From assembly GCA_905480285.1 (NCBI GenBank), contig CAJQPT010000204.1, positions 1-36,266 on the forward strand: a stretch of DNA of 36,266 bases, read 5' to 3'. Below are positions 5,988-29,649 of the stretch, one piece after another. The stretch is from an uncultured bacterium (GTDB lineage: Bacteria > Planctomycetota > UBA1135 > GCA-002686595). Position 1 is the stretch's first letter; each line of letters begins with the position of its first letter. A program made the position numbers and the translations under genes. The notes under the pieces are model-generated. The model did not search any database. It was not told the DNA's origin and was given only the letters and a program-made list of their open reading frames with translations.

Positions 5988-6549
5988 GCCCAGGCCGTTG
6001 ACTCCTCGACGCGGTCAACCTCGCTCGGAGCGCGCCCAGGCGCTCCGGGACGCCCGGCGGGTCCAGCGGACCGCGGCGACCAACGCAGCCGCCGTGCTGG
6101 CGCTGGTCGCCGCGGCGCTGGGTCCGCTCCTGACCGTCTGGAGCGTCAACGAGGTGAACCGCGAGTTCGGCGTGCTCGCGGTTCGCTCTCCCCTGACGGG
6201 CTCGCTGCACCCGTTCCTCCTGACCTATCTAGCTGCGGGCACCGCGGCCCTCGGCGCCATCGGGCTCCTGACCCGTCAGCCCTGGGGTTGGTGGGCCGCG
6301 GCCGGGGGCGCGATTCTCGGGCTCGCGGACCTCGCTCGCCTCTACGTCGGGCTGTTCGGCTCGATCAACCCCGACCACCCCAGGGCAGCCGAGGTCACCC
6401 TGGAGCTGCTGGGCATCGTGGCCCTCCCCGGGGCGCTGTTCACCGCGGTCATCGTGCTCCTCGCCCTCCGCCCGGTGCGCGTGGCGTGCCGCGTCTCGAG
6501 CAGCGGGAGGCGACCCAAGACCGACGCAGAGGTGGGCGAAGAGGGCTAG
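5956..6549 (+). CDS. Four-helix membrane protein, unrecognised
   Basis: I do not recognise this 197-residue protein. It has four hydrophobic helices, roughly residues 45-64, 86-105, 108-132 and 150-172, separated by short loops. Its N-terminus is Arg-rich and its tail is polar. The ATG at 5956 overlaps the end of mscS by 32 bases; a TTG at 5998, just after the mscS stop, is an alternative start that would give 183 residues. The close spacing suggests co-transcription with mscS, and with imuA 32 bases downstream. Whether it assists the channel cannot be told from the sequence. Confidence 0.6.
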   Translation: MSTCTRWTPAEPRPLTPRRGQPRSERAQALRDARRVQRTAATNAAAVLALVAAALGPLLTVWSVNEVNREFGVLAVRSPLTGSLHPFLLTYLAAGTAALGAIGLLTRQPWGWWAAAGGAILGLADLARLYVGLFGSINPDHPRAAEVTLELLGIVALPGALFTAVIVLLALRPVRVACRVSSSGRRPKTDAEVGEEG

Positions 6550-6581
6550 GCAGCAACCTAACAAAACCCTACCCTCGCGCC

Positions 6582-7535
6582 ATGCGATCGCCCCAAGGCA
6601 TCGAGGCGCTGCTCGAGCAGCTGCGAACCGGACCTCTGACCAGCGCTCCGGAGCCTGACCCCGAGGTCTTCGGGCGGCCTTCCCGCGCGGTCTCCAGCGG
6701 CTGGCCCTCGATCGACCGTGTCACGGGCTCCACAAGCGGCGCCGCCGGCCTCGTCCGCGGGTGCGTCCACGAGTGGTTTGGCGTCGGCGGTGCAGACCCC
6801 GCTCTCGCGGACCGCAGCACGCGGGAGTGGAGCCCTCCCCTGCTCCTCCTCACGCACCTCGCCCGCCGAGCCGCCTCCGACGCCGCCGCCCGCAGCGCCC
6901 CCGCCTCGGTCGTCTGGATCGGACGTCGGGTCTGGCCTTACCCGGGCGCCGTCGCGCGACGACCCGCTGTGGTCGAAGGGCAGCAGGCGCCCGACGCGGA
7001 GCGCTCCGCCGGAGAGTTCGAGGTCCACCTGGAGCCCGGGGACGACGCCCTCTCTGAAGGCTCCGGAGAGGAGGCCGGCGCCAAGTCCGGCGCAGAACCC
7101 GGCGCTGAACCTCGCGCTGAACCTCACGCAGAACCTCACGACCGAGCCCCCACAGAAGTGGGACTCATCGAGCGGTCCATCTTCGCCGCCCCCAAGGACG
7201 CCAGCCTGCGCCTCTGGACCATCGACACGGCCCTGCGGTGCCCCGGCGTCACCGCCGTGATCGCCGATGGCTCGGGGCTCGGGATGGCGGCCACTCGCAG
7301 GCTCCAGCTCGCGGCCACATCTTCCGAGGCCCTCGTGCTACTCGCGCGGCCACCGGGAGAGGAACGCGAGGTCTCGGCCGCCACCACCCGCTGGCGGATC
7401 AGCCGGCGGGAGAGCGCCGGCGACGGCCCGGCCTGGAGCGCGACCCTCCTGCGCGCCAAGGGAGCCCAGCAGCTCCACCGGAGCCAGATCCTCGCCCTCC
7501 GAACCGCACACGAGCGGAGGCGAGGCGCCGGCTAG
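6582..7535 (+). CDS. imuA: ImuA-like RecA-superfamily protein of the mutasome
   Basis: ImuA proteins are RecA-like accessory factors of ImuB/DnaE2 translesion synthesis. The ATG at 6582 opens a 317-residue protein. It has the family's N-terminal 'VSSGWPSIDRVTG' and 'VRGCVHEWFG' segments, a core strand 'ASVVWIGRRVWPYPGA', and a C-terminal RecA-like half ('LRLWTIDTALRCPGVTAVIAD', 'ATRRLQLAATSSEALVLLAR', 'TTRWRISRR'). After HEWFG there is no GxxxxGKT, so the Walker A motif is lost, as is frequent in ImuA. Between the halves is a low-complexity insert with the repeat GAEP/RAEP/HAEP. It stands 97 bases before imuB, and that neighbour is the strongest support for the assignment. Confidence 0.75.
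   Translation: MRSPQGIEALLEQLRTGPLTSAPEPDPEVFGRPSRAVSSGWPSIDRVTGSTSGAAGLVRGCVHEWFGVGGADPALADRSTREWSPPLLLLTHLARRAASDAAARSAPASVVWIGRRVWPYPGAVARRPAVVEGQQAPDAERSAGEFEVHLEPGDDALSEGSGEEAGAKSGAEPGAEPRAEPHAEPHDRAPTEVGLIERSIFAAPKDASLRLWTIDTALRCPGVTAVIADGSGLGMAATRRLQLAATSSEALVLLARPPGEEREVSAATTRWRISRRESAGDGPAWSATLLRAKGAQQLHRSQILALRTAHERRRGAG
7077..7136 (+). repeat. In-frame 12-bp tandem repeat inside imuA
   Basis: Five adjacent 12-base units start at 7077, 7089, 7101, 7113 and 7125. The first is diverged and the rest follow the pattern GGCGCTGAACCT. They encode GAKS-GAEP-GAEP-RAEP-HAEP, a linker between the two halves of ImuA. The unit length keeps the reading frame if copy number changes. Confidence 0.85.
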
Positions 7536-7632
7536 CGGCCGCCCGCACCGCCCCCGACACGGAGGGGCGTGAATCGAACGAGGGAGAACTGCCCATGAGG
7601 AGGGCCTGACACCTGAAGACCGAGCAAGGCCC

Positions 7633-9219
7633 ATGAGGCGCGTACTCGCCATCCACCTGCGTTCCCTGTCCATTGATCTGGCCCAGCGCCGCCGTCGCCG
7701 CGCGGCCCGGCGCCCCGGGGCTCCCAAGACCTCCTGTATCCTGCTCGCCCGCTCGAGCAACGGCCGGTCCCTCGTGGCCGCCCGCTGCAACGAGGCGGCC
7801 CGGCGCGGTGTACGCCTCGGGCTCTCCCTCGCCGAGGCCCAGGCGCTGATCGACCCCCAGGTCCGCGCACGCCACGGGGACCCCTGGGTCGAGGAGCTCT
7901 CGGAGGAGCGCGACCTGCGCGCGCTCCACGCCCTCGGGCAGTGGCTCATGGCCCGCTTCTCACCGCTCGTCGCCCTCGAGCCCCCCGACGGCCTGTTCGT
8001 GGACGTCGCTGGCACAGAGCGCCTCTTCGGCGACGAAGAGGAGCTCTGCCGTGCCGTCCTGCGTGCCATGCACCGGCTGGAGATCGGCTCACGCCTGGCG
8101 GTGGCCGACACCGTCGGCGCTGCGTCCGCCATCGCGCGGTTCGGACGCACGCCCCGCCAGATCGTCCCCGGCGGCGATGAGGCCCTGGCCCTGGGTCCGC
8201 TGCCCATCGCCGCGCTTCGGCTCCCCGGGGCCACCTGCGAGGCCCTCGCCGAGCTCGGCGTGGAGTCGGTCCAGGAACTCCTGAGGCTCGACCGTGACCG
8301 CGTGGCGGCGCGGTTCGGGGGCGACGTCGCCATGCGCCTCGACCAGGCCCTCGGCCGCGCGTTCGAATCGGTCACGCCCCTCGCCTTCGAGAGCCCTCCC
8401 CAGGCCGAGCGCGTGTTCGAGGGCCCGGTCCGACAAGCCGAGACCATCAGCCTGGTCGCCGAGGAACTCGTGGGCGAACTCTGTGGCGAGCTCCAACGGG
8501 CGCGCCAAGGCGTCCTGGAGGCAACCCTCGTGCTCGAGCCGTCCGACCTACCGCCGCGACGACTGCCGATCTCCCTCTCCCGGCCCAGCGCTGACCCGCG
8601 GCACCTCTGGACCATGCTCCGGCCCGGCGTCGAGTCCGTGCACCTCGGCTTCGGCATCGAGCGGATCCGCTTCGTCGCGGTCCGGACCGGGCGCCTCCCT
8701 GCCCAACAGGTCGGAGCCTGGGAGCCTCCGGAGGCGGCCAGCACCCCCGCGACTCAACCCCTCGACCGGCACGTGGGCGAGCTCGTGGACGTCCTCGCCG
8801 CTCGCCTCGGGCCGGAGAACGTGCTGGCCGCCCGCGCCGAGCCCTCGCTCCTCCCCGAGCGATCCTACTCATGGATCCGCCCCCAGGAGCACCGGGCCAG
8901 GGGAGCCAGCAAGCCCCGCCACATGCCCCGCCCCTCTCTGCTCTTCTCCCCGCCGGAGCCCGCCACCTTCGAGAACCCCGGCGAGACGGAGGAGCTCCCT
9001 GGTCGCCTGCGTTGGCGCGGGATCGCCTATCGCATTCGCCGGGCGCGGGGCCCCGAGCGGCTCGCGCGACCCTGGTGGGACGACAGCCCCGCCTGGCCCG
9101 ACGGGTCACCTCACACCGTGCGCGACTACTACCGGCTGGAGACCAGCTGCGGACGCTCCCTGTGGGCCTTCCGCGAGCCCAAACACGGGCGCGCCTTCAT
9201 CCAGGGGGAGTGGACCTGA
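7633..9219 (+). CDS. imuB: ImuB-like Y-family DNA polymerase homologue
   Basis: ImuB is a catalytically dead Y-family polymerase that bridges the sliding clamp and a DnaE2-type polymerase during SOS mutagenesis. This 528-residue protein has the N-terminal palm start (MRRVLAIHLRSLSIDLA) and the fingers region 'GVRLGLSLAEAQAL'. The second palm motif 'PDGLFVDVAGTERLFGDE' occupies the place where active enzymes have SIDEAYLD-like sequence. The catalytic Glu is Gly, and the first-motif Asp is not evident, which fits an inactive ImuB. A helix-hairpin-helix-like part ('LPGATCEALAELGVESVQEL') and the little-finger domain follow. The C-terminal part ends with the 'YRLETSCGRSLWAFRE' stretch usual in ImuB. 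No dnaE2 follows within this window. Confidence 0.85.
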   Translation: MRRVLAIHLRSLSIDLAQRRRRRAARRPGAPKTSCILLARSSNGRSLVAARCNEAARRGVRLGLSLAEAQALIDPQVRARHGDPWVEELSEERDLRALHALGQWLMARFSPLVALEPPDGLFVDVAGTERLFGDEEELCRAVLRAMHRLEIGSRLAVADTVGAASAIARFGRTPRQIVPGGDEALALGPLPIAALRLPGATCEALAELGVESVQELLRLDRDRVAARFGGDVAMRLDQALGRAFESVTPLAFESPPQAERVFEGPVRQAETISLVAEELVGELCGELQRARQGVLEATLVLEPSDLPPRRLPISLSRPSADPRHLWTMLRPGVESVHLGFGIERIRFVAVRTGRLPAQQVGAWEPPEAASTPATQPLDRHVGELVDVLAARLGPENVLAARAEPSLLPERSYSWIRPQEHRARGASKPRHMPRPSLLFSPPEPATFENPGETEELPGRLRWRGIAYRIRRARGPERLARPWWDDSPAWPDGSPHTVRDYYRLETSCGRSLWAFREPKHGRAFIQGEWT

Positions 9220-10274: not shown

Positions 10275-10784
10275 ATGACCGACGAATCCCAGCCCTGCAT
10301 CGGCCCCACGGACACCACGGCCCGTATCCGGACCCTCCTCGACGACGCCGGCGTCGCCTACCGCTACATCGAGCACGGCCCCACGCGCACGAGCAAGGCG
10401 TCCGCGGCGGCCCGCGGAGAGGTCCTCGACGTGGGCGGGAAGTCCATTGTGCTCAAGGTCGGGGACACCTTCCGGGTCTGCGTGCTCTCCGCCGCGCGAC
10501 AGCTCAACTCCAACCGCGTCCGCCGGCACTTCAGCGAGAGCCGCGCCCGCTTCGCCAGCCGCGAGGAGCTCCTGGACCTGACCGGCCTCGTCCCCGGCTG
10601 CGTCCCGCCCTTCGGGCCGCCCATCCTCACGCTGCCCAACTGCCTCGACGAGGCGTTCCTGGAGCACGACCGCATCGCCTTCAACGCGGGCTCGCTCACC
10701 TGCTCCATCGTGATGCCCCTGGAGAGGTACCTCGAGCTCGCCCGCCCCGAGGTGTTCTCATTCTCAAAGTCCCCGAGCCCCTGA
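10275..10784 (+). CDS. YbaK/EbsC-family aminoacyl-tRNA deacylase
   Basis: Members of this family hydrolyse mischarged tRNAs in trans, for example Cys- or Ala-tRNA(Pro). The protein has 169 residues, usual for a free-standing editing domain. Seen in it are the N-terminal 'IRTLLDDAGVAYRYIEHGPTR', the core 'GGKSIVLKVGDTFRVCVLSA' with the conserved lysine region, 'VPGCVPPFGPP' and 'AFNAGSLTCSIVM'. These match the YbaK/ProX fold in order. The substrate cannot be read from the sequence. It converges on the giant helicase gene and shares a divergent promoter gap with the DUF4097 gene. Confidence 0.85.
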   Translation: MTDESQPCIGPTDTTARIRTLLDDAGVAYRYIEHGPTRTSKASAAARGEVLDVGGKSIVLKVGDTFRVCVLSAARQLNSNRVRRHFSESRARFASREELLDLTGLVPGCVPPFGPPILTLPNCLDEAFLEHDRIAFNAGSLTCSIVMPLERYLELARPEVFSFSKSPSP

Positions 10785-10985: not shown

Positions 10986-13900
10986 CTAGGTCTCGATCGG
11001 ACGGATCGCCGTCCCTGGCCCCGGGTCCGCGGCCAGCCGCTCCCGGAGACATGCATCGAGGCGCTCCACCTCGGCGTCCGGGTCCCGCCACCAGTCCACG
11101 GTCCAGACCCGCAGGAGATCCCAGCCCAGGCCGGTGAGCACCATGGGGCGCAGCCGGTCCCGGTCCCGCGCCGTGGCCGAACGCGCGTAGTTCTCGCCGT
11201 CGGTCTCGATCCCCGCCAGGAATCGTCCGGGACGTGCGGGGTGCACGACGGCGACATCGACCCGGACGCTCGAGGCCCCCACCCCGGTGGACACCTCCCA
11301 CCCCCGCTCCTCGAGGCGCGCCGCGAGGTGCTCCACCAGGCCATCGGAGGACCCCGCGGACGCAGGGCTCGTCGCGCTGACGCTCAGCGTGCCCCGCTCC
11401 GCGTGGCGCAGGAACGCCTGCAGGTCGCGGACAGCCCGCGCGCTCGTCCGGGCGAGATCGATCTGATCGGGCCGCAGGGACGTGAACACCAGGACCTCCT
11501 CACGTGCGCGGGTGACCGCCACATTCAGCCGTCGCTCTCCGCCGTCCTTGTTCAGCGGCCCGAAGTTCATGGACACGTTGCCGCGCTCGTCCGGACCGTA
11601 GCCCACGGAGAACACGATCACGTCCCGCTCGTCGCCCTGGACGTTCTCCAGGTTCTTCACGAACACCGGCTCCTCGGCGCCCTCATCAAAGAAGCGCTCC
11701 AGCTCCGGATGCTCGCGGACCGCGCCATCGAACAGGTCCATGACCAGGGTCTGCTGCGCCTGACTGAACGTCACGACGCCGATGGAGCGTGACCCCTGCG
11801 CGGGATCCTTGAGGCGGCGGACGACCTCCGACACGACCTCCCTGGCCTCGACCGCGTTGGTCCTCGTACGCCCCTTGTCATACACGCCGTCCTCGACGTA
11901 GCGCGAGGAGACCCCGAGCCCCTCCGAGGAGTTCGACGGGAACGTGAGGAGTCCGCCGTCGTAGTAGCGCTCGTTGCTGAACGCGATGAGGCTCTCGTGG
12001 CGGCTGCGGTAGTGCCAGGCCAGGCGCTGGGTGGGCACCTGGGCCCCGATGCACTCCTCGAGGATGCTCTCGAGGTCCTGGATCTCGTCCTCCTCCACGG
12101 CCTCGTCCTCGCTGCGGCTGAAGAAGCTGGTAGGCGGGAGCTGCTTGGGATCGCCGACGATGACGGCCTGATTGCCCCGCGCGATCGCGCCGATGCCGTC
12201 CCAAACGGGGATCTGAGAGGCCTCGTCGAAGACCACCAGGTCAAAGCGCGGGAGGTCCGCCTCGAGGTATTGAGCCACCGACATCGGGCTCATGAGGAAG
12301 CACGGCTTGAGCTCCATCGCCAGCTCACCGAGCTCGGCCAGCAGGCGTCGAATGGCCATGTGGCGGGTCTTCTTGGTGATCTCCCGCTGAAGGACACCCA
12401 GCGCCGTGCCACGGTTCTTTTCGCGCAGGGTCGAGGGCTGGGGGCGCTTGGCCCCGACTCGCTGGCGGACCTCCTCTCGCGCCGCCTCGAGGCGCTCCTC
12501 ATCCAGGCTCTCGAAGCGCTCCACGGCCCGGAGCTGATCGGTGCCGTCGAAGGCCTTGAGCGCTTCGTCGGCGGAGATCTCGTGCAGCGCCCAGGCCTGA
12601 GAATAGGCCTCATCAAAGGCGCCGCGCGCGCGACCACCGCGGACCCGGCCCTCCTCGAGCGCGGCGACCACATCGCCGCGGCCAGCCTCGACCGCCGCGG
12701 CGCGCAGGACCTGCCAGCGAGTCCAACCGCGCAGCTCACCCCAGCGGTCGGTCCAGCGCAGGGTCAGCGCCTGCAGGCCCGCGACCTCGTCCCGGGTCCA
12801 TCCGACAGGCGCGCCCGGGAGCGGCTGCGCAGCTTCCTCGGCCGCCACCTTGCGAGCCTCGAGTTCGAGCAGCGCCGGCCTGAGCTCCCGTACGCCGGCC
12901 GCGAGCGGACCCTCGGGGTCCGTCAGCCCCTGGCCCCAGGAGGCCAACAACGCGTCGCCCGCGGACCGCTGGCTCGAGCCCGCGTCAGGGGCGAACGCGG
13001 CGAGGGCCTCCACGAGCCGCTGAACGCGATCGAGGTGATCCGCACAGGCCGCGAGGTCAGGCGCCTCGCCACCCCAGCCGGAGCCAAGGACCGCGCGCTC
13101 GAGGTCTCCGCAGCTCCCGACGTCGCCCTCGAGCTCCAGGGCCCGCTGGACCTCGTCGAGCCCCCTGACCGCGTCCTCGCTCCCGATCGAGTCTGGCTCA
13201 CGGGCGATGCCGCGGAACGCGTCGCGCAACGTCCGACGCCCCCGCCAGCGAGTCAGCAGTCCGAACAGGCCGCTGGCAAGGGTGTCCCGTCGCGCCCGCT
13301 CCAGCCCGTCGAGGTCGAGCGAGCGGGGCGCGGCGCGATAACGGGCATCGAAGCCTGCCTCCAGCGCCGCCAGGTCCGTCGCGGCCTTCAGGCGCTCGGC
13401 TGCTCCAGCGAGATGCGGCCCATCCTCCAACGTGCCTGCCGCGGCGCCGCCCAGCTCCGGGGCGCCCTCCAGCGCCCCGGCCACGTCGAGCAGCAGGTCC
13501 CACCCCGCGCGCGTGGCGGGGGAGGCCTGCCCGAGGAGCTCGAGGACACCGTCGGCCGCGGCCAGGAACTCGGACGCCGCCCCGTCGAACGCCTTGAGGT
13601 CGGCCAGGGTCTCATCCTCGATGATCGGCGAGTACTCCCTCCGCCCCACCAGCAGGAGGGGATGCTCCGGCGACACCAGCTGCTCGCGGGCCACCGGGTC
13701 CAGGTCCCCGAGGGCGCGGCGCCAGCGGTCGAGCTCCTCTGCGCTCACGGCGGTGGGGTCGCCCAGGTCTAGCTTCAGGGTCGCGTCCGCCGTGCGGGAG
13801 GCCGAGCGATGCTCGGCGATGACCCCGTGGATCGACTCCCCGGAGCGGCGCTCGCGGTGCAGCGCGTCCACGTGGCGGTTGAGCCGGCCCCGCGCGGCAT

Positions 13901-16900
13901 CGACCTCTTCGGCGACCTCCTCCCAGCGCCGACGTCGCGCGCCACGAACCCGCCCCTCTTCGAGGGACTCCTTGAACTGCTCGAGGACGCCCTTCTTGTT
14001 GGCCTTGTTCGAGTGCAGCTCGAGGCACGCGGGCCCGAGCCCCAGGCCGCGGAGCCGTCGGTGCACCACGTCCAGCGCGGCCATCTTCTCCGAGACGAAC
14101 AGGACTCGCTGCCCCTGGGCGATGACGTGTGCGATCAGGTTGGTGATGGTCTGCGACTTGCCCGTTCCCGGAGGGCCCTCGAGGACCATCGTCCGCCCAC
14201 GAGCCGCGGCGAGGATCGCGCTGAGCTGGGTCGAGTCGTAGGAGAGCGGCGCGAAGACCTCGTCCGCTCCGATCTCCGCGTCCAGCTCGCCCGGCGAGAG
14301 CGCAGCACCCGCCTCCTCGAACGGCTCGCGGGGCCGGTCCAGGAGGTGTGCCACCAGGGCGTTCTCCCGCAGGACATCGGAGCGATCCCGCAGGTCGCGC
14401 CAGAGCAGGTACTTCGAGAACGAGTAGAGCCCCACCTGGCCCTCCTCGGTGACCTCCCATCCGTCCTCGTCCTTGATGGCGTCCTTGATGAGCCGGAGCA
14501 CGAGCGCGACGTCGACGCCGTTCTCGTCCTCGGGCAACGGGTCGAGGCCGGCGATGTTCACGTCGTGGTCCCGGCGCAGGTACTCCAGCAGGGTCACGTT
14601 GATGCGTGTCTCATCCCCTCCCTTCACCAGCGAGTAGCCGGCGCGCCCCGACTTGCGCTTGATCTCGAGCGGGACGAGCAGGAGCGGCGCGCGACGCACA
14701 CGGGTGGCCTGGCGAGTCTCTCGATAGGAGAGGAAGCCGACCGCAAGGTAGAGGCTGTTGACCCCGCCCTCCTCGCGCGCCGTGCGGGCCTCCCTGTACA
14801 CGTTCGTCAGGCGGACCTCGAGCTCCGCGGCGTCCAGAGAGGACCGGAGCTGCCCCTCCTCGACGCCCGCTGTCAGCAGGGCATCCAGGCCGCGGATGGC
14901 CTCCTCATCCGGCGCTCCCTTGCCAGGCAGCTCCGACGGGCGCTCGAGGACGGCGAACGTGCGGCCCGCCGCCAGGCGATCCTCCACGGCGTCGAGCTTG
15001 CTCCCGAGCAGCGGGATGACCCGCTTGCTCCCGCTGGAGGAGTTCAAGAGCCGGTTCCGCATGGTCAGGTCGAGGAGCTGACGGAGCCAGCGATCCAGCC
15101 GCGTCTCAGGTGTCTCCTCCGCCTCTCGGCGCAGCCGGTCCGCCTCCAGGTACGCCTTGAGGTCAGCCTCCAGGTCTCGGGCCGAGGCTGTCGGCATGGC
15201 CGCGCTGGGTGCGACGCCAGCGCTGGGCGCTCCCGAGCCATCGGCGGCGAAGGTGGGGAGCGGCAGCATGCCCCCGCGGCGGGCCCTCGCCACGTCCACC
15301 GCGAAGCGGAACGCCGTCCGATCCAGCAGCTCACGCTCCGCCACCTCGCGGGCACCCGCGAAGTCAGGGGAGGGCCGGTGGCAGGCTCCCGTGGGGTCAA
15401 AGACGCAGATCTCGGCCAGCTCGACCCGCTTCGAGAGGCGCAGCGGCTCCTCCACCAGGGGGTTCGAGAAGGTGCGCTCCACCAGCCAGGCGCCCACGAA
15501 GGCGTGACCGCGGATGACGATGACGATGGGGTGGAGGCCCACCTGCTCCATGGCCGCTGCGGCCAGCAGCGAGACGTCCAGGCAGGTGGCCAGTCGCGCC
15601 TGTTCGATGGCGGCGGGAAAGCGCACGCGCTGCCCGTCACTCTCGAAGCTGGCCGGGTGGTTGGCGTAGCTGATCTGTGCGTCCAGCAGGGCCCCGTAGA
15701 TGGCCTCGACCATGTGCAGCGCATGGATCGGATCGCGGGACTGATAGCCGCTGAGCGCCGGCTCGTGGCCCGCCCGCTCGAGCCTTTGGGCCGCCGCTGA
15801 CAGCAGCCACGTCACGAAGGGCGCGTTGGGCAGGACGAAGGCCGCGAGCACCTCCGGGAGGGCCGAGATGCCCGGCCAGGAGTCCGCCGGGTGAAGCTCC
15901 CAGGCGGCCCGCGCGTAGCCGAGCTCGTGCCCCTCGCCCGACAGGGCGCGCGCGACGACCGAGCCCTCTGCGCGCTCGGTCAGCCGGGCCAGGAGCGCCG
16001 GGTCGTAGCGCAGGGGACCTTCCAGCTGGTCGGCGCCGAGCTCCAGCTCCCCTCCCGGCGCGAGCGGCGGGAGCTCGATGACCGCGTCCGGGAAGAACGC
16101 CGGCGTCGCGGTCAGCATCACCCTGGAGGCGGGGAGGCCCGTGGCGGACACGTTGCGGACCTTCAGCGCGTGTACGGGCGCCCGATGGCCGCGGAGCATC
16201 GCCAGGTGGACCCGCGGGAGCAGCTCGAGGCAGATCTCCACCCGCGGCGCGGCGCCCGTCTCCTCGCGCTCCTCCGCCGCCCCACGGAGCGCGGCCTCCA
16301 AGTCGTCCCCGAGGGCTGCTTCCCCGGGGGCTGTCCCCGCCTGGGCCGCTGCCTGCGAGGTGCCCTCCCGCGACTCGGGAGTCGCGAGCTCGATCACGCC
16401 GCCGTCATCCGCGTCGAGGCGCCCAAGGTCTTCCTCGAGCGCGCGGAGGTGCCGCCCGATGACGTCCTGGTCCACTCCCTCGACGCCCTGGGCATCGACC
16501 AGCAGGGTGCGGGCCTCCTCGAGGCGCGCCCGCTGCACCCCCGCCCGCCGCGCCGCGCTCGCGCGCTCGATCAGGCTCGCGGCGGCGTTGATGCGCCACG
16601 CGGTGGGGAAGCGCGCCTCGAGGTCGACCATGAAGGCCTTCAGCTGCGCCTCGATCTCCGGCGGGAGGCCCACCTCGAGCAACTCCGCGTGGCTGGACCG
16701 GGCCAGGTCGTACCGGGCGGATGCGGTCTCGGGCACGCCCGACTCCAGGGCGATCTGGATCGAGTCCCGCAACACCTGGAACAGGCCCATGACGCGCTCG
16801 CGCTCCGCCGCCGCGGATTCCGCTGCCGCCGATTCCACTGCCGCCGATTCCGCTGCCGCGGCCTTTACTGCGGCGGACTCCACCTCCGCGGCCTCTCTCG

Positions 16901-16973
16901 ACGGGTCTCCGCCGACCGGGGTCGGAGCGGCGATGCCTGGTCTCGCGGCGGGCTGATCGGGGTGAGGGTCCAT
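10986..16973 (-). CDS. Giant DUF4011 / SF1 helicase / MTES-Vsr nuclease with transglutaminase-like module
   Basis: This protein of about 1,995 residues resembles single-protein defence candidates with DUF4011, helicase and Vsr-like nuclease domains. Order: Ala-rich repeat linker; helical part; a transglutaminase-like module with C464 (ATCLD), H490 (GHAFVG) and D526 (FDPT); DUF4011 from about residue 624 ('LLDLTMRNRLLN'); SF1 helicase with Walker A GPPGTGKS (K939) and motif II DEAS (D1583-E1584). About 640 mostly helical residues separate these two motifs. 'VAVTRAREEVLVF' lies near 1816. The C-terminal nuclease has D1906 (RVDVAVV), E1923/D1925 (IETDG) and 'TARDRDRLRP'. A GTG at 17000 is an alternative start; neither start has a Shine-Dalgarno. 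It probably recognises and cuts foreign or damaged DNA, which is inference. Confidence 0.85.
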   Translation of the reverse strand: MDPHPDQPAARPGIAAPTPVGGDPSREAAEVESAAVKAAAAESAAVESAAAESAAAERERVMGLFQVLRDSIQIALESGVPETASARYDLARSSHAELLEVGLPPEIEAQLKAFMVDLEARFPTAWRINAAASLIERASAARRAGVQRARLEEARTLLVDAQGVEGVDQDVIGRHLRALEEDLGRLDADDGGVIELATPESREGTSQAAAQAGTAPGEAALGDDLEAALRGAAEEREETGAAPRVEICLELLPRVHLAMLRGHRAPVHALKVRNVSATGLPASRVMLTATPAFFPDAVIELPPLAPGGELELGADQLEGPLRYDPALLARLTERAEGSVVARALSGEGHELGYARAAWELHPADSWPGISALPEVLAAFVLPNAPFVTWLLSAAAQRLERAGHEPALSGYQSRDPIHALHMVEAIYGALLDAQISYANHPASFESDGQRVRFPAAIEQARLATCLDVSLLAAAAMEQVGLHPIVIVIRGHAFVGAWLVERTFSNPLVEEPLRLSKRVELAEICVFDPTGACHRPSPDFAGAREVAERELLDRTAFRFAVDVARARRGGMLPLPTFAADGSGAPSAGVAPSAAMPTASARDLEADLKAYLEADRLRREAEETPETRLDRWLRQLLDLTMRNRLLNSSSGSKRVIPLLGSKLDAVEDRLAAGRTFAVLERPSELPGKGAPDEEAIRGLDALLTAGVEEGQLRSSLDAAELEVRLTNVYREARTAREEGGVNSLYLAVGFLSYRETRQATRVRRAPLLLVPLEIKRKSGRAGYSLVKGGDETRINVTLLEYLRRDHDVNIAGLDPLPEDENGVDVALVLRLIKDAIKDEDGWEVTEEGQVGLYSFSKYLLWRDLRDRSDVLRENALVAHLLDRPREPFEEAGAALSPGELDAEIGADEVFAPLSYDSTQLSAILAAARGRTMVLEGPPGTGKSQTITNLIAHVIAQGQRVLFVSEKMAALDVVHRRLRGLGLGPACLELHSNKANKKGVLEQFKESLEEGRVRGARRRRWEEVAEEVDAARGRLNRHVDALHRERRSGESIHGVIAEHRSASRTADATLKLDLGDPTAVSAEELDRWRRALGDLDPVAREQLVSPEHPLLLVGRREYSPIIEDETLADLKAFDGAASEFLAAADGVLELLGQASPATRAGWDLLLDVAGALEGAPELGGAAAGTLEDGPHLAGAAERLKAATDLAALEAGFDARYRAAPRSLDLDGLERARRDTLASGLFGLLTRWRGRRTLRDAFRGIAREPDSIGSEDAVRGLDEVQRALELEGDVGSCGDLERAVLGSGWGGEAPDLAACADHLDRVQRLVEALAAFAPDAGSSQRSAGDALLASWGQGLTDPEGPLAAGVRELRPALLELEARKVAAEEAAQPLPGAPVGWTRDEVAGLQALTLRWTDRWGELRGWTRWQVLRAAAVEAGRGDVVAALEEGRVRGGRARGAFDEAYSQAWALHEISADEALKAFDGTDQLRAVERFESLDEERLEAAREEVRQRVGAKRPQPSTLREKNRGTALGVLQREITKKTRHMAIRRLLAELGELAMELKPCFLMSPMSVAQYLEADLPRFDLVVFDEASQIPVWDGIGAIARGNQAVIVGDPKQLPPTSFFSRSEDEAVEEDEIQDLESILEECIGAQVPTQRLAWHYRSRHESLIAFSNERYYDGGLLTFPSNSSEGLGVSSRYVEDGVYDKGRTRTNAVEAREVVSEVVRRLKDPAQGSRSIGVVTFSQAQQTLVMDLFDGAVREHPELERFFDEGAEEPVFVKNLENVQGDERDVIVFSVGYGPDERGNVSMNFGPLNKDGGERRLNVAVTRAREEVLVFTSLRPDQIDLARTSARAVRDLQAFLRHAERGTLSVSATSPASAGSSDGLVEHLAARLEERGWEVSTGVGASSVRVDVAVVHPARPGRFLAGIETDGENYARSATARDRDRLRPMVLTGLGWDLLRVWTVDWWRDPDAEVERLDACLRERLAADPGPGTAIRPIET
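16810..16884 (-). repeat. In-frame 15-bp tandem repeat in the helicase N-terminus
   Basis: Five consecutive 15-base units begin at 16810, 16825, 16840, 16855 and 16870. The best copies read GCCGCCGATTCCGCT on the plus strand, and the last two are diverged. On the coding strand they give a five-residue Ala-rich period of the SAAAE/SAAVE kind between residues about 30 and 55. Confidence 0.85.
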
Positions 16974-17045
16974 CGCTGGCGGCTGGCTCGAAGGCGCCAC
17001 GCCGAGTCGAGACTCTAGCAGGGACCGCGCTGCCCGGTCGGCCCC

Positions 17046-19025
17046 TCAGCGGTCTGCTTCCTCGACGTCGAGCGTCCCCGCGATCAGGTCCCGGGCGAGG
17101 TCCAGCTCGCGGTGCTCCCCGCGGACGACCAGGAGGTCCCCCGGCTCCAGCACGAGCTCGGCGCCGGGCCCGTGGATTTCGTCGCCGCCGCGGACGACCG
17201 AGAGCACCGTCGCGCCGGTCCGGACCCGGAACCCCATCTCCCCCAGGGACCGGCCGCAACCCGCGCAGTCCGCGCCGACGAAGAGCGTGTCCACGGCCGT
17301 GCTCGCGAGGATCTCCCCCACCACCGCCAGGTGACGCTCCTCGGCCACCGGCCCACGCAGCAGCTGGTAGCCCTCTCGACGAACGAGCTCGGTCTGCACC
17401 GCGATCGTCCCACGTGGGACGTGGAGCTCTCGCAGGACGCGGCCGAAGATCTCCACCGACGTCTCGAACTCCTCGGGGACCACCTGGTTCGCGCCGAGGC
17501 GCAGGAGCTCCTCCGTATCGCTGAGGAAGCGGGTCCGGACGATGACCTGGACGGACGGCGAGAGCTGTCGCGCGAGCGCCACCGCCCGCCGGGTCGCCCC
17601 GGCGTCGTTGATGGCCACCACGAAGACCTTGGTCCCGGCGATCCCCGCCTGGGCCAGGGCATCGGCGCGGCTCGCGTCCGCCAGCACAATCGGCACCCCC
17701 GCGGCGCGCTCGCGCTTGACCCGGTGGGGGTCGGTGTCGAGCACGCGATGGTCGATCCCGGTGGCGGCGAGCACCCGCGCGAGGTGCTCTCCCGTGAGCC
17801 CATAACCCGCGATCAGGACCTTCGGCGCGTCCTCGAGCCCCCCCTGGGCGCCCCCCATGGCGGTCGAGGGCCGGCCCGCCGCACCGCGCCTCCAGGCGAG
17901 GCGCATCACCACCGGAGTGACGACCATGGAGAGGACGGCCACGGCCAGGAAGCGCTGCTCGTCTGCCCCGCCCAGCACCCCGAGCTCCCTCGCCTGACTC
18001 GCCACGACGAAGGCGAACTCCCCGACCTGGAAGAGGGCCGCCGCGACGATCATCGCGGTGCGCCGCGAGCGGGTCAGATAGAAGCCGACTCCGAAGACCA
18101 CCGCCGCCTTCGTCGCAGCGACGGCGAGGAACAGCGAGAGGGTCTCCACCGGCTCCTCGATGACGATCGAGGCGTCGAAGAGCATCCCGATGGAGACGAA
18201 GAAGAGCGCGCTGAACACGTCCCGGAAGGGCAGGATCTCGTCGACGACTTGGTGGTTGTACTCCGACTCAGAGACGACCAGGCCGGCGATGAAGGCCCCC
18301 AAGGCCAGGGGCAGGTCGAGGCTCTCGGTGAGCCACGCGGCCCCCAGGGCCACCAGCACAGTGAAGAGCGTGAAGAGCTCGCGACCGCCGGCCCGCACGA
18401 CCACCGGGGCCATGCGCGAGAAGCCGTAGCGCGCGGCCAGGAGGACGATGCCGACCGCCATCACGGCCTTGGCCCCCGCGACCCCGAACTCCGAGAGGTC
18501 GCCTCCGCCGCCGCCGCCGAGCAGGGGAACGAAGAGGAGCAAGGGGATGATCGCGAGGTCCTGGAAGAGCAGGATCGCCACGGCGAGCTGGCCGTGGGGC
18601 GTGTCCACCTGGCGCTCGTCGGTCAGCGTCTTCAGCACCACCGCCGTGCTGGAGAGGACGACAAGGAAGGCGAAGAGCACCGAGCCAGACACGTCGCGAC
18701 CGAGGGCGACCCCGCCCAGCCCGACGACCAGGAGGGTCAGCAAGACCTGACCGAAGCCGCCGACCAGGAGAGCCCGCTTGAGGAGCAAGAGCCTGGGGAG
18801 CGAGAACTCCAGCCCGACGGTGAAGAGCAGCAGCGCGACCCCGATCTCGGCCAACGCCTCCACCTCCTCGACCGAGCGGATCCAGCTCAGGGCATGCGGC
18901 CCAAACAGGGCGCCCGCCACGACAAATCCAGCTACCGTCGGCAGCTGAACGCGCCGGAGCAGGATGACGATCGGGATCGACGCTGCGAGGAGCAGCACGA
19001 TGTCCGTGAGGAACGTATGAGGCAT
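17046..19025 (-). CDS. CPA2-family monovalent cation:proton antiporter with RCK/TrkA domains (KefB-like)
   Basis: This 659-residue protein should exchange K+ or Na+ for protons at the inner membrane. Residues 1 to about 385 form a dozen or so transmembrane helices with antiporter signatures ('VEALAEIGVALLLFTVGLEF', 'AILLFQDLAIIPLLLFVPLL', 'LPLALGAFIAGLVVSES', 'VFSALFFVSIGMLFD'). From about residue 400 an RCK-N (TrkA-N) Rossmann domain follows, with 'KVLIAGYGLTGEHLARVL' and D at the end of the second strand. A TrkA-C domain ends the protein ('LVLEPGDLLVVRGEHREL'). This suggests gating by NAD(H) or other ligands. The ATG at 19025 lies 30 bases after the SDR stop, so transcription with the sugar operon is possible. 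Confidence 0.9.
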   Translation of the reverse strand: MPHTFLTDIVLLLAASIPIVILLRRVQLPTVAGFVVAGALFGPHALSWIRSVEEVEALAEIGVALLLFTVGLEFSLPRLLLLKRALLVGGFGQVLLTLLVVGLGGVALGRDVSGSVLFAFLVVLSSTAVVLKTLTDERQVDTPHGQLAVAILLFQDLAIIPLLLFVPLLGGGGGGDLSEFGVAGAKAVMAVGIVLLAARYGFSRMAPVVVRAGGRELFTLFTVLVALGAAWLTESLDLPLALGAFIAGLVVSESEYNHQVVDEILPFRDVFSALFFVSIGMLFDASIVIEEPVETLSLFLAVAATKAAVVFGVGFYLTRSRRTAMIVAAALFQVGEFAFVVASQARELGVLGGADEQRFLAVAVLSMVVTPVVMRLAWRRGAAGRPSTAMGGAQGGLEDAPKVLIAGYGLTGEHLARVLAATGIDHRVLDTDPHRVKRERAAGVPIVLADASRADALAQAGIAGTKVFVVAINDAGATRRAVALARQLSPSVQVIVRTRFLSDTEELLRLGANQVVPEEFETSVEIFGRVLRELHVPRGTIAVQTELVRREGYQLLRGPVAEERHLAVVGEILASTAVDTLFVGADCAGCGRSLGEMGFRVRTGATVLSVVRGGDEIHGPGAELVLEPGDLLVVRGEHRELDLARDLIAGTLDVEEADR

Positions 19026-28071: not shown

Positions 28072-28097
28072 CAGAGTTGCCCTTCAGAGTTGCCCTT
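28072..28097. repeat. 13-bp tandem repeat spanning the PLD stop codon
   Basis: CAGAGTTGCCCTT occurs twice back to back (28072-28084 and 28085-28097). The stop codon of the PLD-like gene (28084-28086) lies at the junction, so the gene's last codons and its 3' flank are copies. Looser relatives (CGCAGAGTTCCCTC near 28044 and CGCAGGGTTGCCC near 28018) lie further downstream of the gene. Confidence 0.8.
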
Positions 28098-29649
28098 CGA
28101 TGGGAAGCCACCCGACGAGACCGCACTTGAACCGCTGCCACAAGGTGGTCCGGGGCTCCTTGCGGTGGGACACGGGCTCATCTCCCTCGATCCCCGTCCA
28201 CAGAAGTCCCTCATCGTCCACCGTCACTCGCCAGCTCCCCTCCGGCGCCATCACCTCTTCGATCCCGCTGATCAGCGTCTCCGCGAGCTCCGGGCTGTCG
28301 ATCACGAAGCCCAGCTCCGTGTTGAGCTGGACCGAGCGCGGGTCGAGGTTCATGGAGCCCACGAACAGGTACCGGCGGTCCGAGATGAAGGTCTTGGCGT
28401 GCAGGCTCGCGTTCTTCGAGCCGAACAGGCCCTCGTCGTAGAGGGCGTCGGTGAAGTCGCTGCTGGGCTGGACCTCGTAGACCTGGACCCCGCCCTCCAC
28501 GAGCTTGCGGCGGTACTTGCGATAGCCGGCGTGCACCGCTCCCACGTCCGTCGAGGCCAGCGAGTTGGTGAGGATCCGGACCTCCACGCCACGGGCCGCG
28601 TCAGCCACGAGGGCGCGCGTCCCCGCCTTTCCAGGGATGAAGTAGGGGGAGACGATCAGGAGCTCCTCCTGCACGGTGGGGATGTCACTCCGCAGGCGCT
28701 CGATCAGCAGCAGCTCGGCGAGATCGTCCCCGCTCGCGACGATCTTCCTGGGCCGATCGCTGTGAGCGTGGGTCACCGCCCAGGTCAGCGGGAGCTCATC
28801 GTCGGCCGCCTCCTTGATGAAGTCCGCCCCGTCCAGCCTCCGCGCGTACGACGAGTCTCGGTTCTCTGCCGCGACGTCCAGGAGCGCAGACCGCAGGGCG
28901 TCGAGGTCGGCCGCGTCCCTCTTGAAGGAGCTCCACCCGTTGAGCTGCTCAGTGAACTCGGAGTTCCAGTATTCGTCGAAGGACTCCCCGAGCTCCGAGA
29001 GCACCGGGCCGAATGCGAGCACGTCGAGGTCACCGAAGTTGACGTCCTCCGCGGCGTCGAAGTACTCATCCCCCACGTTCCGCCCGCCGACGATCCCCGC
29101 GAGCCCGTCGACGGTGAGCATCTTGTTGTGCATCCGATGGTTGATCCGGAAGGGCCGGCCCATGAGGTCCAGGGTCTTCGCCATCCAGTTCCAAGGCCCC
29201 CGCGCCCGCGGGTTGAAGAGCCGCACCTCGAGGTGCTCATGCACGTTCGCCGCGGCGAGCCGATCATCGATGCCATCTGACCCCAGGTCGTCGATCAGGA
29301 GCCGCACCCGTACGCCGCGGTCCGCCGCCTCAAGCAGCAGCTTGAGCAGGATCGATCCCGTGATGTCATCGTGGAAGATGTAGTACTGCACGTCGACGGC
29401 GTGCTCCGCGCGCTTGATCATCGCGGCGCGGGAAGCGAAGGCGTCCAGCCCGTCCCCGAGCAGATACAGCCCCGTCTCCCCAGGGTGGCGATCCAGGATC
29501 TCGCTGATCTTGGCGCCGATCTTCGACTCCACCGGGCCGTCGAAGGCGAAGCTTGGGGTCGCGGCGCCGTCCAGCCGGGGATAGACGCAGGAGGGGAGCG
29601 TCGCAAGCAGCAGGACGTTGAGGGCATGACAGCTCTTCATCAATTCCAT
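28084..29649 (-). CDS. PLD-family lipoprotein, cardiolipin-synthase-like (ClsC/YmdC type)
   Basis: Phospholipase D superfamily enzyme of 521 residues, likely to transfer or hydrolyse phosphatidyl groups at the envelope. Both HKD motifs are present: HNKMLTVD (H174, K176, D181) followed by 'GRN', and HAKTFISD (H417, K419, D424) followed by 'GSMN'. The N-terminus is a lipoprotein signal ending ATLPSC (C21). The C-terminus 'WQRFKCGLVGWLPIEGQL' matches the ending typical of ClsC/YmdC-like proteins. Start choice is the ATG at 29649; the ATG at 29640 is equally possible. It diverges from the DUF4136 gene across 83 bp. Cardiolipin or another phospholipid headgroup exchange is likely; the partner substrate is unknown. 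Confidence 0.88.
   Translation of the reverse strand: MELMKSCHALNVLLLATLPSCVYPRLDGAATPSFAFDGPVESKIGAKISEILDRHPGETGLYLLGDGLDAFASRAAMIKRAEHAVDVQYYIFHDDITGSILLKLLLEAADRGVRVRLLIDDLGSDGIDDRLAAANVHEHLEVRLFNPRARGPWNWMAKTLDLMGRPFRINHRMHNKMLTVDGLAGIVGGRNVGDEYFDAAEDVNFGDLDVLAFGPVLSELGESFDEYWNSEFTEQLNGWSSFKRDAADLDALRSALLDVAAENRDSSYARRLDGADFIKEAADDELPLTWAVTHAHSDRPRKIVASGDDLAELLLIERLRSDIPTVQEELLIVSPYFIPGKAGTRALVADAARGVEVRILTNSLASTDVGAVHAGYRKYRRKLVEGGVQVYEVQPSSDFTDALYDEGLFGSKNASLHAKTFISDRRYLFVGSMNLDPRSVQLNTELGFVIDSPELAETLISGIEEVMAPEGSWRVTVDDEGLLWTGIEGDEPVSHRKEPRTTLWQRFKCGLVGWLPIEGQL

What the first reader, a model, noticed from the sequence alone, without database searches (positions are those of the whole stretch)
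10986..16973. Single giant DUF4011-helicase-nuclease, a candidate stand-alone defence system
One gene encodes DUF4011, an SF1 helicase with intact Walker A (K939) and DEAS (D1583-E1584), and a C-terminal MTES/Vsr-like nuclease with D1906, E1923 and D1925. About 640 residues separate the two helicase motifs. Similar DUF4011-helicase-Vsr proteins have been reported as antiphage candidates. Here no other defence gene or mobile element is adjacent, so it may work alone and be a resident chromosomal gene.
Basis: partly seen in the sequence, partly recalled or inferred. Interest (0 to 1): 0.6.

Follow-up and report, generated by a model that had tools for sequence, protein, structure and literature searches.

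The report
Resident copy of known antiphage protein ProA

Summary
One intact minus-strand gene (16973 to 10986, 1995 aa) carries DUF4011, an SF1 helicase and an MTES_1575/Vsr-like nuclease. The quoted residues (K939, D1583-E1584, D1906, E1923, D1925) are exact with the ATG at 16973. It is not a new system: NCBIfam's curated 'anti-phage protein ProA' model matches at 1808.5 bits (cut-off 1500), PADLOC PDC-S37 at 1174 bits; Hhe is a more distant cousin, below its cut-off. DUF4011 plus helicase model as one Upf1-like SF1B unit; the 640-residue gap between motifs is largely a helical insertion in it. The C-terminal DUF3320 of typical ProA is absent here and not encoded nearby. The gene is under purifying selection (omega about 0.15), lies at the same site in five close species and forms one clade in 8 of 9 genus members, but is patchy in family and phylum. 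Best reading: a resident, probably stand-alone, antiphage ATP-driven nuclease. Function in this host is untested.

The parts
10986..16973 (-). ProA-family gene, 1995 aa, ATG at 16973
   Evidence: Open frame, invariant start Met in relatives, NCBIfam NF058533 1808.5 bits over 1500; omega about 0.15
16410..16904 (-). N-terminal helical region, residues 24-188, mainly conserved within the genus
   Evidence: AlphaFold2 model; conserved in the genus, little aligned outside
15885..16256 (-). Ig-like beta-sandwich, residues 240-363
   Evidence: Model pLDDT above 90; VIA-align Z up to 10.0, including the C-terminal beta domains of factor XIII and transglutaminase 3
15276..15869 (-). Transglutaminase/cysteine-peptidase-like domain, residues 369-566; C464 (15582-15584), H490 (15504-15506), D526 (15396-15398)
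   Evidence: Pfam DUF553 over cut-off in the G001 orthologue; Transglut_core in 10 and DUF553 in 4 of 54 relatives; match to 3kd4 Z 9.1; C/H kept or lost together
14577..15080 (-). DUF4011, residues 632-799
   Evidence: Pfam PF13195 3.9e-41; falls within the range aligned to Upf1-like helicases
13875..14240 (-). SF1 helicase RecA1, AAA_11; Walker A K939
   Evidence: Pfam PF13086
12426..13874 (-). Long all-helical insertion between motifs I/Ia and II
   Evidence: AlphaFold2 secondary structure; fastest-changing part of the core
12216..12227 (-). Walker B DEAS, residues 1583-1586
   Evidence: DE present in all 102 aligned relatives
11481..12068 (-). SF1 helicase RecA2, AAA_12
   Evidence: Pfam PF13087 1.9e-16
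11052..11330 (-). MTES_1575 (Vsr/PD-(D/E)xK-like) nuclease; D1906, E1923, D1925
   Evidence: Pfam PF18741 2.6e-27; alignment
17046..19025 (-). Upstream neighbour: Na+/H+ exchanger with TrkA domains (context, not part of the system)
   Evidence: Pfam; same neighbour in four sister species
10275..10784 (+). Downstream convergent neighbour: aminoacyl-tRNA editing-domain protein (context)
   Evidence: Pfam PF04073 5.2e-21

Best explanation
A chromosomally resident member of the ProA antiphage family. Most likely the single protein patrols nucleic acid: the DUF4011/Upf1-like SF1B motor binds a free or single-stranded end exposed during phage replication and translocates with ATP; the C-terminal MTES/Vsr-like nuclease then cuts that DNA. 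The N-terminal Ig plus transglutaminase-like (Cys-His-Asp) domain probably switches the machine on or off by acting on a protein (a phage protein or ProA itself). Shown: family membership, domain content, intact motifs, purifying selection, vertical inheritance in the genus. Inferred: defence in this host, DNA as target, direction of translocation, role of the peptidase-like part.
For: NCBIfam equivalog antiphage_ProA 1808.5 bits over cut-off 1500, model positions 3-1708; PADLOC PDC-S37 1174 bits. Intact helicase and nuclease residues. Profile and fold matches of the helicase to SMUBP-2, Sen1, Upf1 and DNA2. TG-like domain. omega about 0.15 overall and 0.02-0.1 in DUF4011, helicase and nuclease domains. 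Same site in five species and one clade for the genus. Family spread patchily across Bacteria and Archaea with mixed phyla, as defence genes usually are; retron-type RT genes lie directly after ProA in Dysgonomonas and Apibacter.
Against: No phage data in this host. No defence gene nearby, and fixation in the sister species could equally mean a maintenance role. The C-terminal DUF3320 part (about 195 model positions) is missing, so activity cannot be assumed from full-length ProA. Papers describing ProA experiments were not found in the held library; its antiphage label rests on the NCBIfam name.
Confidence: 0.72

Rival explanations
1. A domesticated housekeeping or genome-maintenance helicase-nuclease (repair of blocked ends or R-loops), no longer mainly antiphage.
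For: Fixed at one locus in five species and present in 8 of 9 genus members; no defence island; strong purifying selection; a DUF4011 gene is a core gene in every P. aeruginosa isolate studied (PMC10250203).
Against: Only 33 of 294 phylum genomes pass the ProA cut-off; not found in G004, 90% complete, which holds both flanking landmarks; family relatives carry ProA of other clades.
Confidence: 0.18
2. The transglutaminase-like domain is the effector: a protease, deamidase or cross-linker unleashed when the helicase senses phage nucleic acid, causing abortive infection, with the nuclease secondary.
For: Cys/His kept or lost together in 71 of 72 relatives, so it looks like a catalytic pair in most; nuclease E1923 is replaced in about a third of the family.
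Against: About two dozen relatives, some scattered inside the TG-bearing clade, lack the domain and none was seen to have it encoded nearby (a few of these are cut by contig ends); several have a dead pair; D1906/D1925 are more widely kept.
Confidence: 0.15
3. A truncated, partly inactive remnant of ProA (loss of DUF3320).
For: C-terminus ends after the nuclease; no DUF3320-type tail in any frame downstream.
Against: Truncated forms recur in several lineages of the tree (some rows end at contig edges) and this one is under purifying selection across five species, omega about 0.15.
Confidence: 0.06

Closest known systems
ProA, NCBIfam NF058533 'anti-phage protein ProA' (probably the DefenseFinder system 'Prometheus'; that link is inferred from the name only)
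   Same: Same order of domains from the Ig/TG-like part to the nuclease; 1808.5 bits over the 1500 cut-off
   Different: Lacks the C-terminal DUF3320 part; carries an extra N-terminal helical region conserved within its genus
PDC-S37 (PADLOC phage defence candidate)
   Same: DUF4011-helicase-nuclease core, 1174 bits
   Different: Its profile starts at DUF4011, so the TG-like module is not part of it
Hhe (Gao Hhe; NCBIfam NF042953)
   Same: DUF4011 domain-containing antiphage protein with related helicase and C-terminal part
   Different: 764 bits against a cut-off of 2000; best match over residues 1409-1972
Hna (single-protein helicase-nuclease, PMC13381803)
   Same: Works-like model: one protein with ATPase and nuclease sites, held in check and released by a phage factor
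   Different: Homology to ProA not tested here; a DUF4011 or TG-like part is not mentioned in the abstract read
Upf1/IGHMBP2/Sen1/DNA2 helicases (SF1B)
   Same: Helicase core and fold
   Different: Cellular RNA/DNA helicases; no Vsr-like nuclease or TG-like domain

Membership tests
ProA (NF058533) | Whole-protein score above curated cut-off (1500 bits) | tested here: met
   1808.5 bits, residues 258-1981 in ATG numbering
ProA (NF058533) | Ig/TG-like N-terminal part included in the model | tested here: met
   Match starts at model position 3; structure model and Pfam hits in relatives
ProA (NF058533) | C-terminal part with DUF3320 (model 1709-1903); a usual part of the family, not required by the curated cut-off | tested here: not met
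   Absent in the window, its four sisters and G001; present in G006 and G007
ProA (NF058533) | Protects against phage | not testable with these tools
   Needs phage challenge
Hhe (NF042953) | Whole-protein score above curated cut-off (2000 bits) | tested here: not met
   764.5 bits
PDC-S37 | Profile match over the DUF4011-helicase-nuclease core | tested here: met
   1173.8 bits, positions 7-1340 of 1550
Transglutaminase-like superfamily | Profile or fold match | tested here: met
   DUF553 21.8 bits over 20.5 in an orthologue; Transglut_core in 10 of 54 relatives; 3kd4 Z 9.1, rmsd 3.3, 134 aligned. The window protein by itself has no Pfam TG hit
Transglutaminase-like superfamily | Catalytic Cys at a helix N-terminus, His and Asp on following strands, close in space | tested here: inconclusive
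SF1B Upf1-like helicase | Helicase motifs and fold | tested here: met
   (Z 20.1 to Upf1, 408 aligned, rmsd 5.2)
MTES_1575 nuclease | Pfam match and acidic residues | tested here: met
   95.1 bits over 38.2; D1906, E1923, D1925
Defence island gene | Other defence or mobile genes adjacent in the window | tested here: not met
   PADLOC and PHROGs scans of neighbours, no meaningful hit

The most novel reading that the evidence does not exclude
A helicase-nuclease defence protein carries a built-in papain/transglutaminase-like enzyme that senses or processes a protein during infection and gates the nuclease; in this genus the whole has become a fixed resident immune gene after shedding DUF3320.
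Probability: 0.3. Interest if true: 0.5.

Novelty: new member of a known kind. Interest (0 to 1): 0.25.

Why it matters
It shows a catalogued single-gene antiphage protein kept as a resident, vertically inherited gene rather than an island passenger, and points to a conserved Cys-His pair in its N-terminal domain as a concrete, testable switch or effector. It also suggests that DUF4011, a domain of unknown function, is part of a Upf1-like helicase body.

Tried and rejected
The + strand reading of the coordinates has stops: the gene is on the minus strand. Detached C-terminal DUF3320 downstream: rejected, no profile hit in six frames, and the conserved stretch at 10275-10784 is a + strand tRNA-editing gene. 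TG domain supplied in trans beside TG-less relatives: none found; two apparent cases (L092, L094) are ProA genes split into two frames, with the TG part in the first. PDB sequence search with the N-terminal alignment: no hit. PLD protein at 28084-29649 matching DrmC: generic PLD motif, over 10 kb away, not taken as DISARM. Literature searches for DUF4011-Vsr and ProA gave no primary description in the held library. P. aeruginosa core DUF4011 gene as the same protein: cannot be said; papers list Prometheus as non-universal there.

Full report
Observation. The gene is on the minus strand, 16973 to 10986, 1995 aa. The alternative GTG at 17000 adds nine residues, but the ATG at 16973 aligns with the start Met of the relatives. 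Pfam finds DUF4011, AAA_11, AAA_12 and MTES_1575 well above their cut-offs.

Identity. NCBIfam's equivalog 'anti-phage protein ProA' (NF058533) matches at 1808.5 bits against a cut-off of 1500; Hhe scores 764.5 against 2000. PADLOC gives PDC-S37 at 1174 bits and Hhe at 548. So it is a member of a named antiphage family. 'Prometheus', a DefenseFinder system met in several papers, is probably the same thing, judging from the name ProA only; I could not verify it.

Residues 240-363 model as an Ig-like sandwich and 369-566 as a transglutaminase/cysteine-peptidase-like domain (AlphaFold2 mean pLDDT 84.5, above 90 over this part). The best fold matches are beta domains including those of factor XIII and transglutaminase 3, and for the second domain a putative protease, 3kd4, Z 9.1 over 134 residues. 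Pfam supports it in relatives: DUF553 over its cut-off in the G001 orthologue, Transglut_core in 10 and DUF553 in 4 of 54 relatives. C464 sits at the start of a helix, H490 and D526 on or after the next strands. Among 72 relatives with the domain, 63 keep both Cys and His, 8 have neither, 1 has only His (Fisher p 7.5e-10, not corrected for relatedness). This is what a catalytic pair should look like.

Helicase. The second model (DUF4011 to the end of RecA2) aligns with Upf1, IGHMBP2 and DNA2 (Z about 19-20), with the aligned range starting in DUF4011. I infer that DUF4011 is the stalk/1B part of a Upf1-like helicase; the aligned ranges are only end points, so this is a lead. The 640 residues between Walker A and Walker B are mostly a long helical insertion, in the place where Upf1-like helicases carry domain 1C (general knowledge). 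It is the fastest-changing part of the core.

C-terminus. Typical ProA continues into DUF3320. It is absent here, in four sister species and in G001, present in G006 and G007, and not found downstream. Truncated forms appear several times in the tree; some rows end at contig edges, so the count is a maximum.

Resident or mobile. The host is a member of Planctomycetota (a sister contig is labelled so). Four sister species have the gene at the same site between the Na+/H+ exchanger and the DUF4097 gene. In the three larger genomes of the genus it lies in other surroundings but, as in the window, on the same contig as the PLP decarboxylase orthologue (about 0.1, 5 and 45 kb away; 17 kb in the window). 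G004 has the decarboxylase and the sugar-transport/SDR stretch but no ProA was found. All eight copies form one clade (support 100), apart from ProA of other family members. Omega to the four sisters is about 0.15. So: gained once before or early in the genus, then inherited vertically. In the phylum only 33 of 294 genomes pass the cut-off.

Defence context. None in the window. In twelve distant loci, 101 neighbouring proteins gave two retron-type reverse transcriptases directly after ProA (Dysgonomonas, Apibacter) and some other PADLOC hits not followed up. This is modest support without a control set.

Mechanism. By analogy with single-protein helicase-nucleases such as Hna (3'-5' ssDNA exonuclease, auto-inhibited, stimulated by a phage SSB; PMC13381803), the motor probably finds exposed phage DNA and the nuclease cuts it. 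The TG-like module is most simply a regulator, because about two dozen relatives do without it. The nuclease Glu is not universal, so nuclease chemistry may differ between branches.

Verdict. Ordinary in kind: a new member of a known antiphage family, with a well-supported extra domain and a resident lifestyle. Interest 0.25.

Noticed in passing
window 10275-10784 (+): Aminoacyl-tRNA editing-domain (tRNA_edit) gene converging on the ProA 3' end.
   Followed up: partly
window 6288-9219 (+): Weak Y-family polymerase (IMS) match at 7633-9219, preceded by a conserved gene without Pfam hit (6288-7535): possibly an ImuA-ImuB-like mutagenesis pair.
   Followed up: no
window 16804-16863: 15-bp tandem repeats coding an Ala/Glu/Ser-rich linker near the ProA N-terminus.
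   Followed up: no
window 28084-29649 (-): PLD-family protein; matches DrmC profiles only over the PLD motif.
   Followed up: partly
window 11205-11207 and relatives: Nuclease residue E1923 is Leu or another residue in about a third of ProA relatives, mostly Bacteroidota and Bacillota.
   Followed up: partly
L086:15806-16966, L095:15759-16838: Retron-type reverse transcriptase genes directly after ProA in Dysgonomonas and Apibacter.
   Followed up: partly
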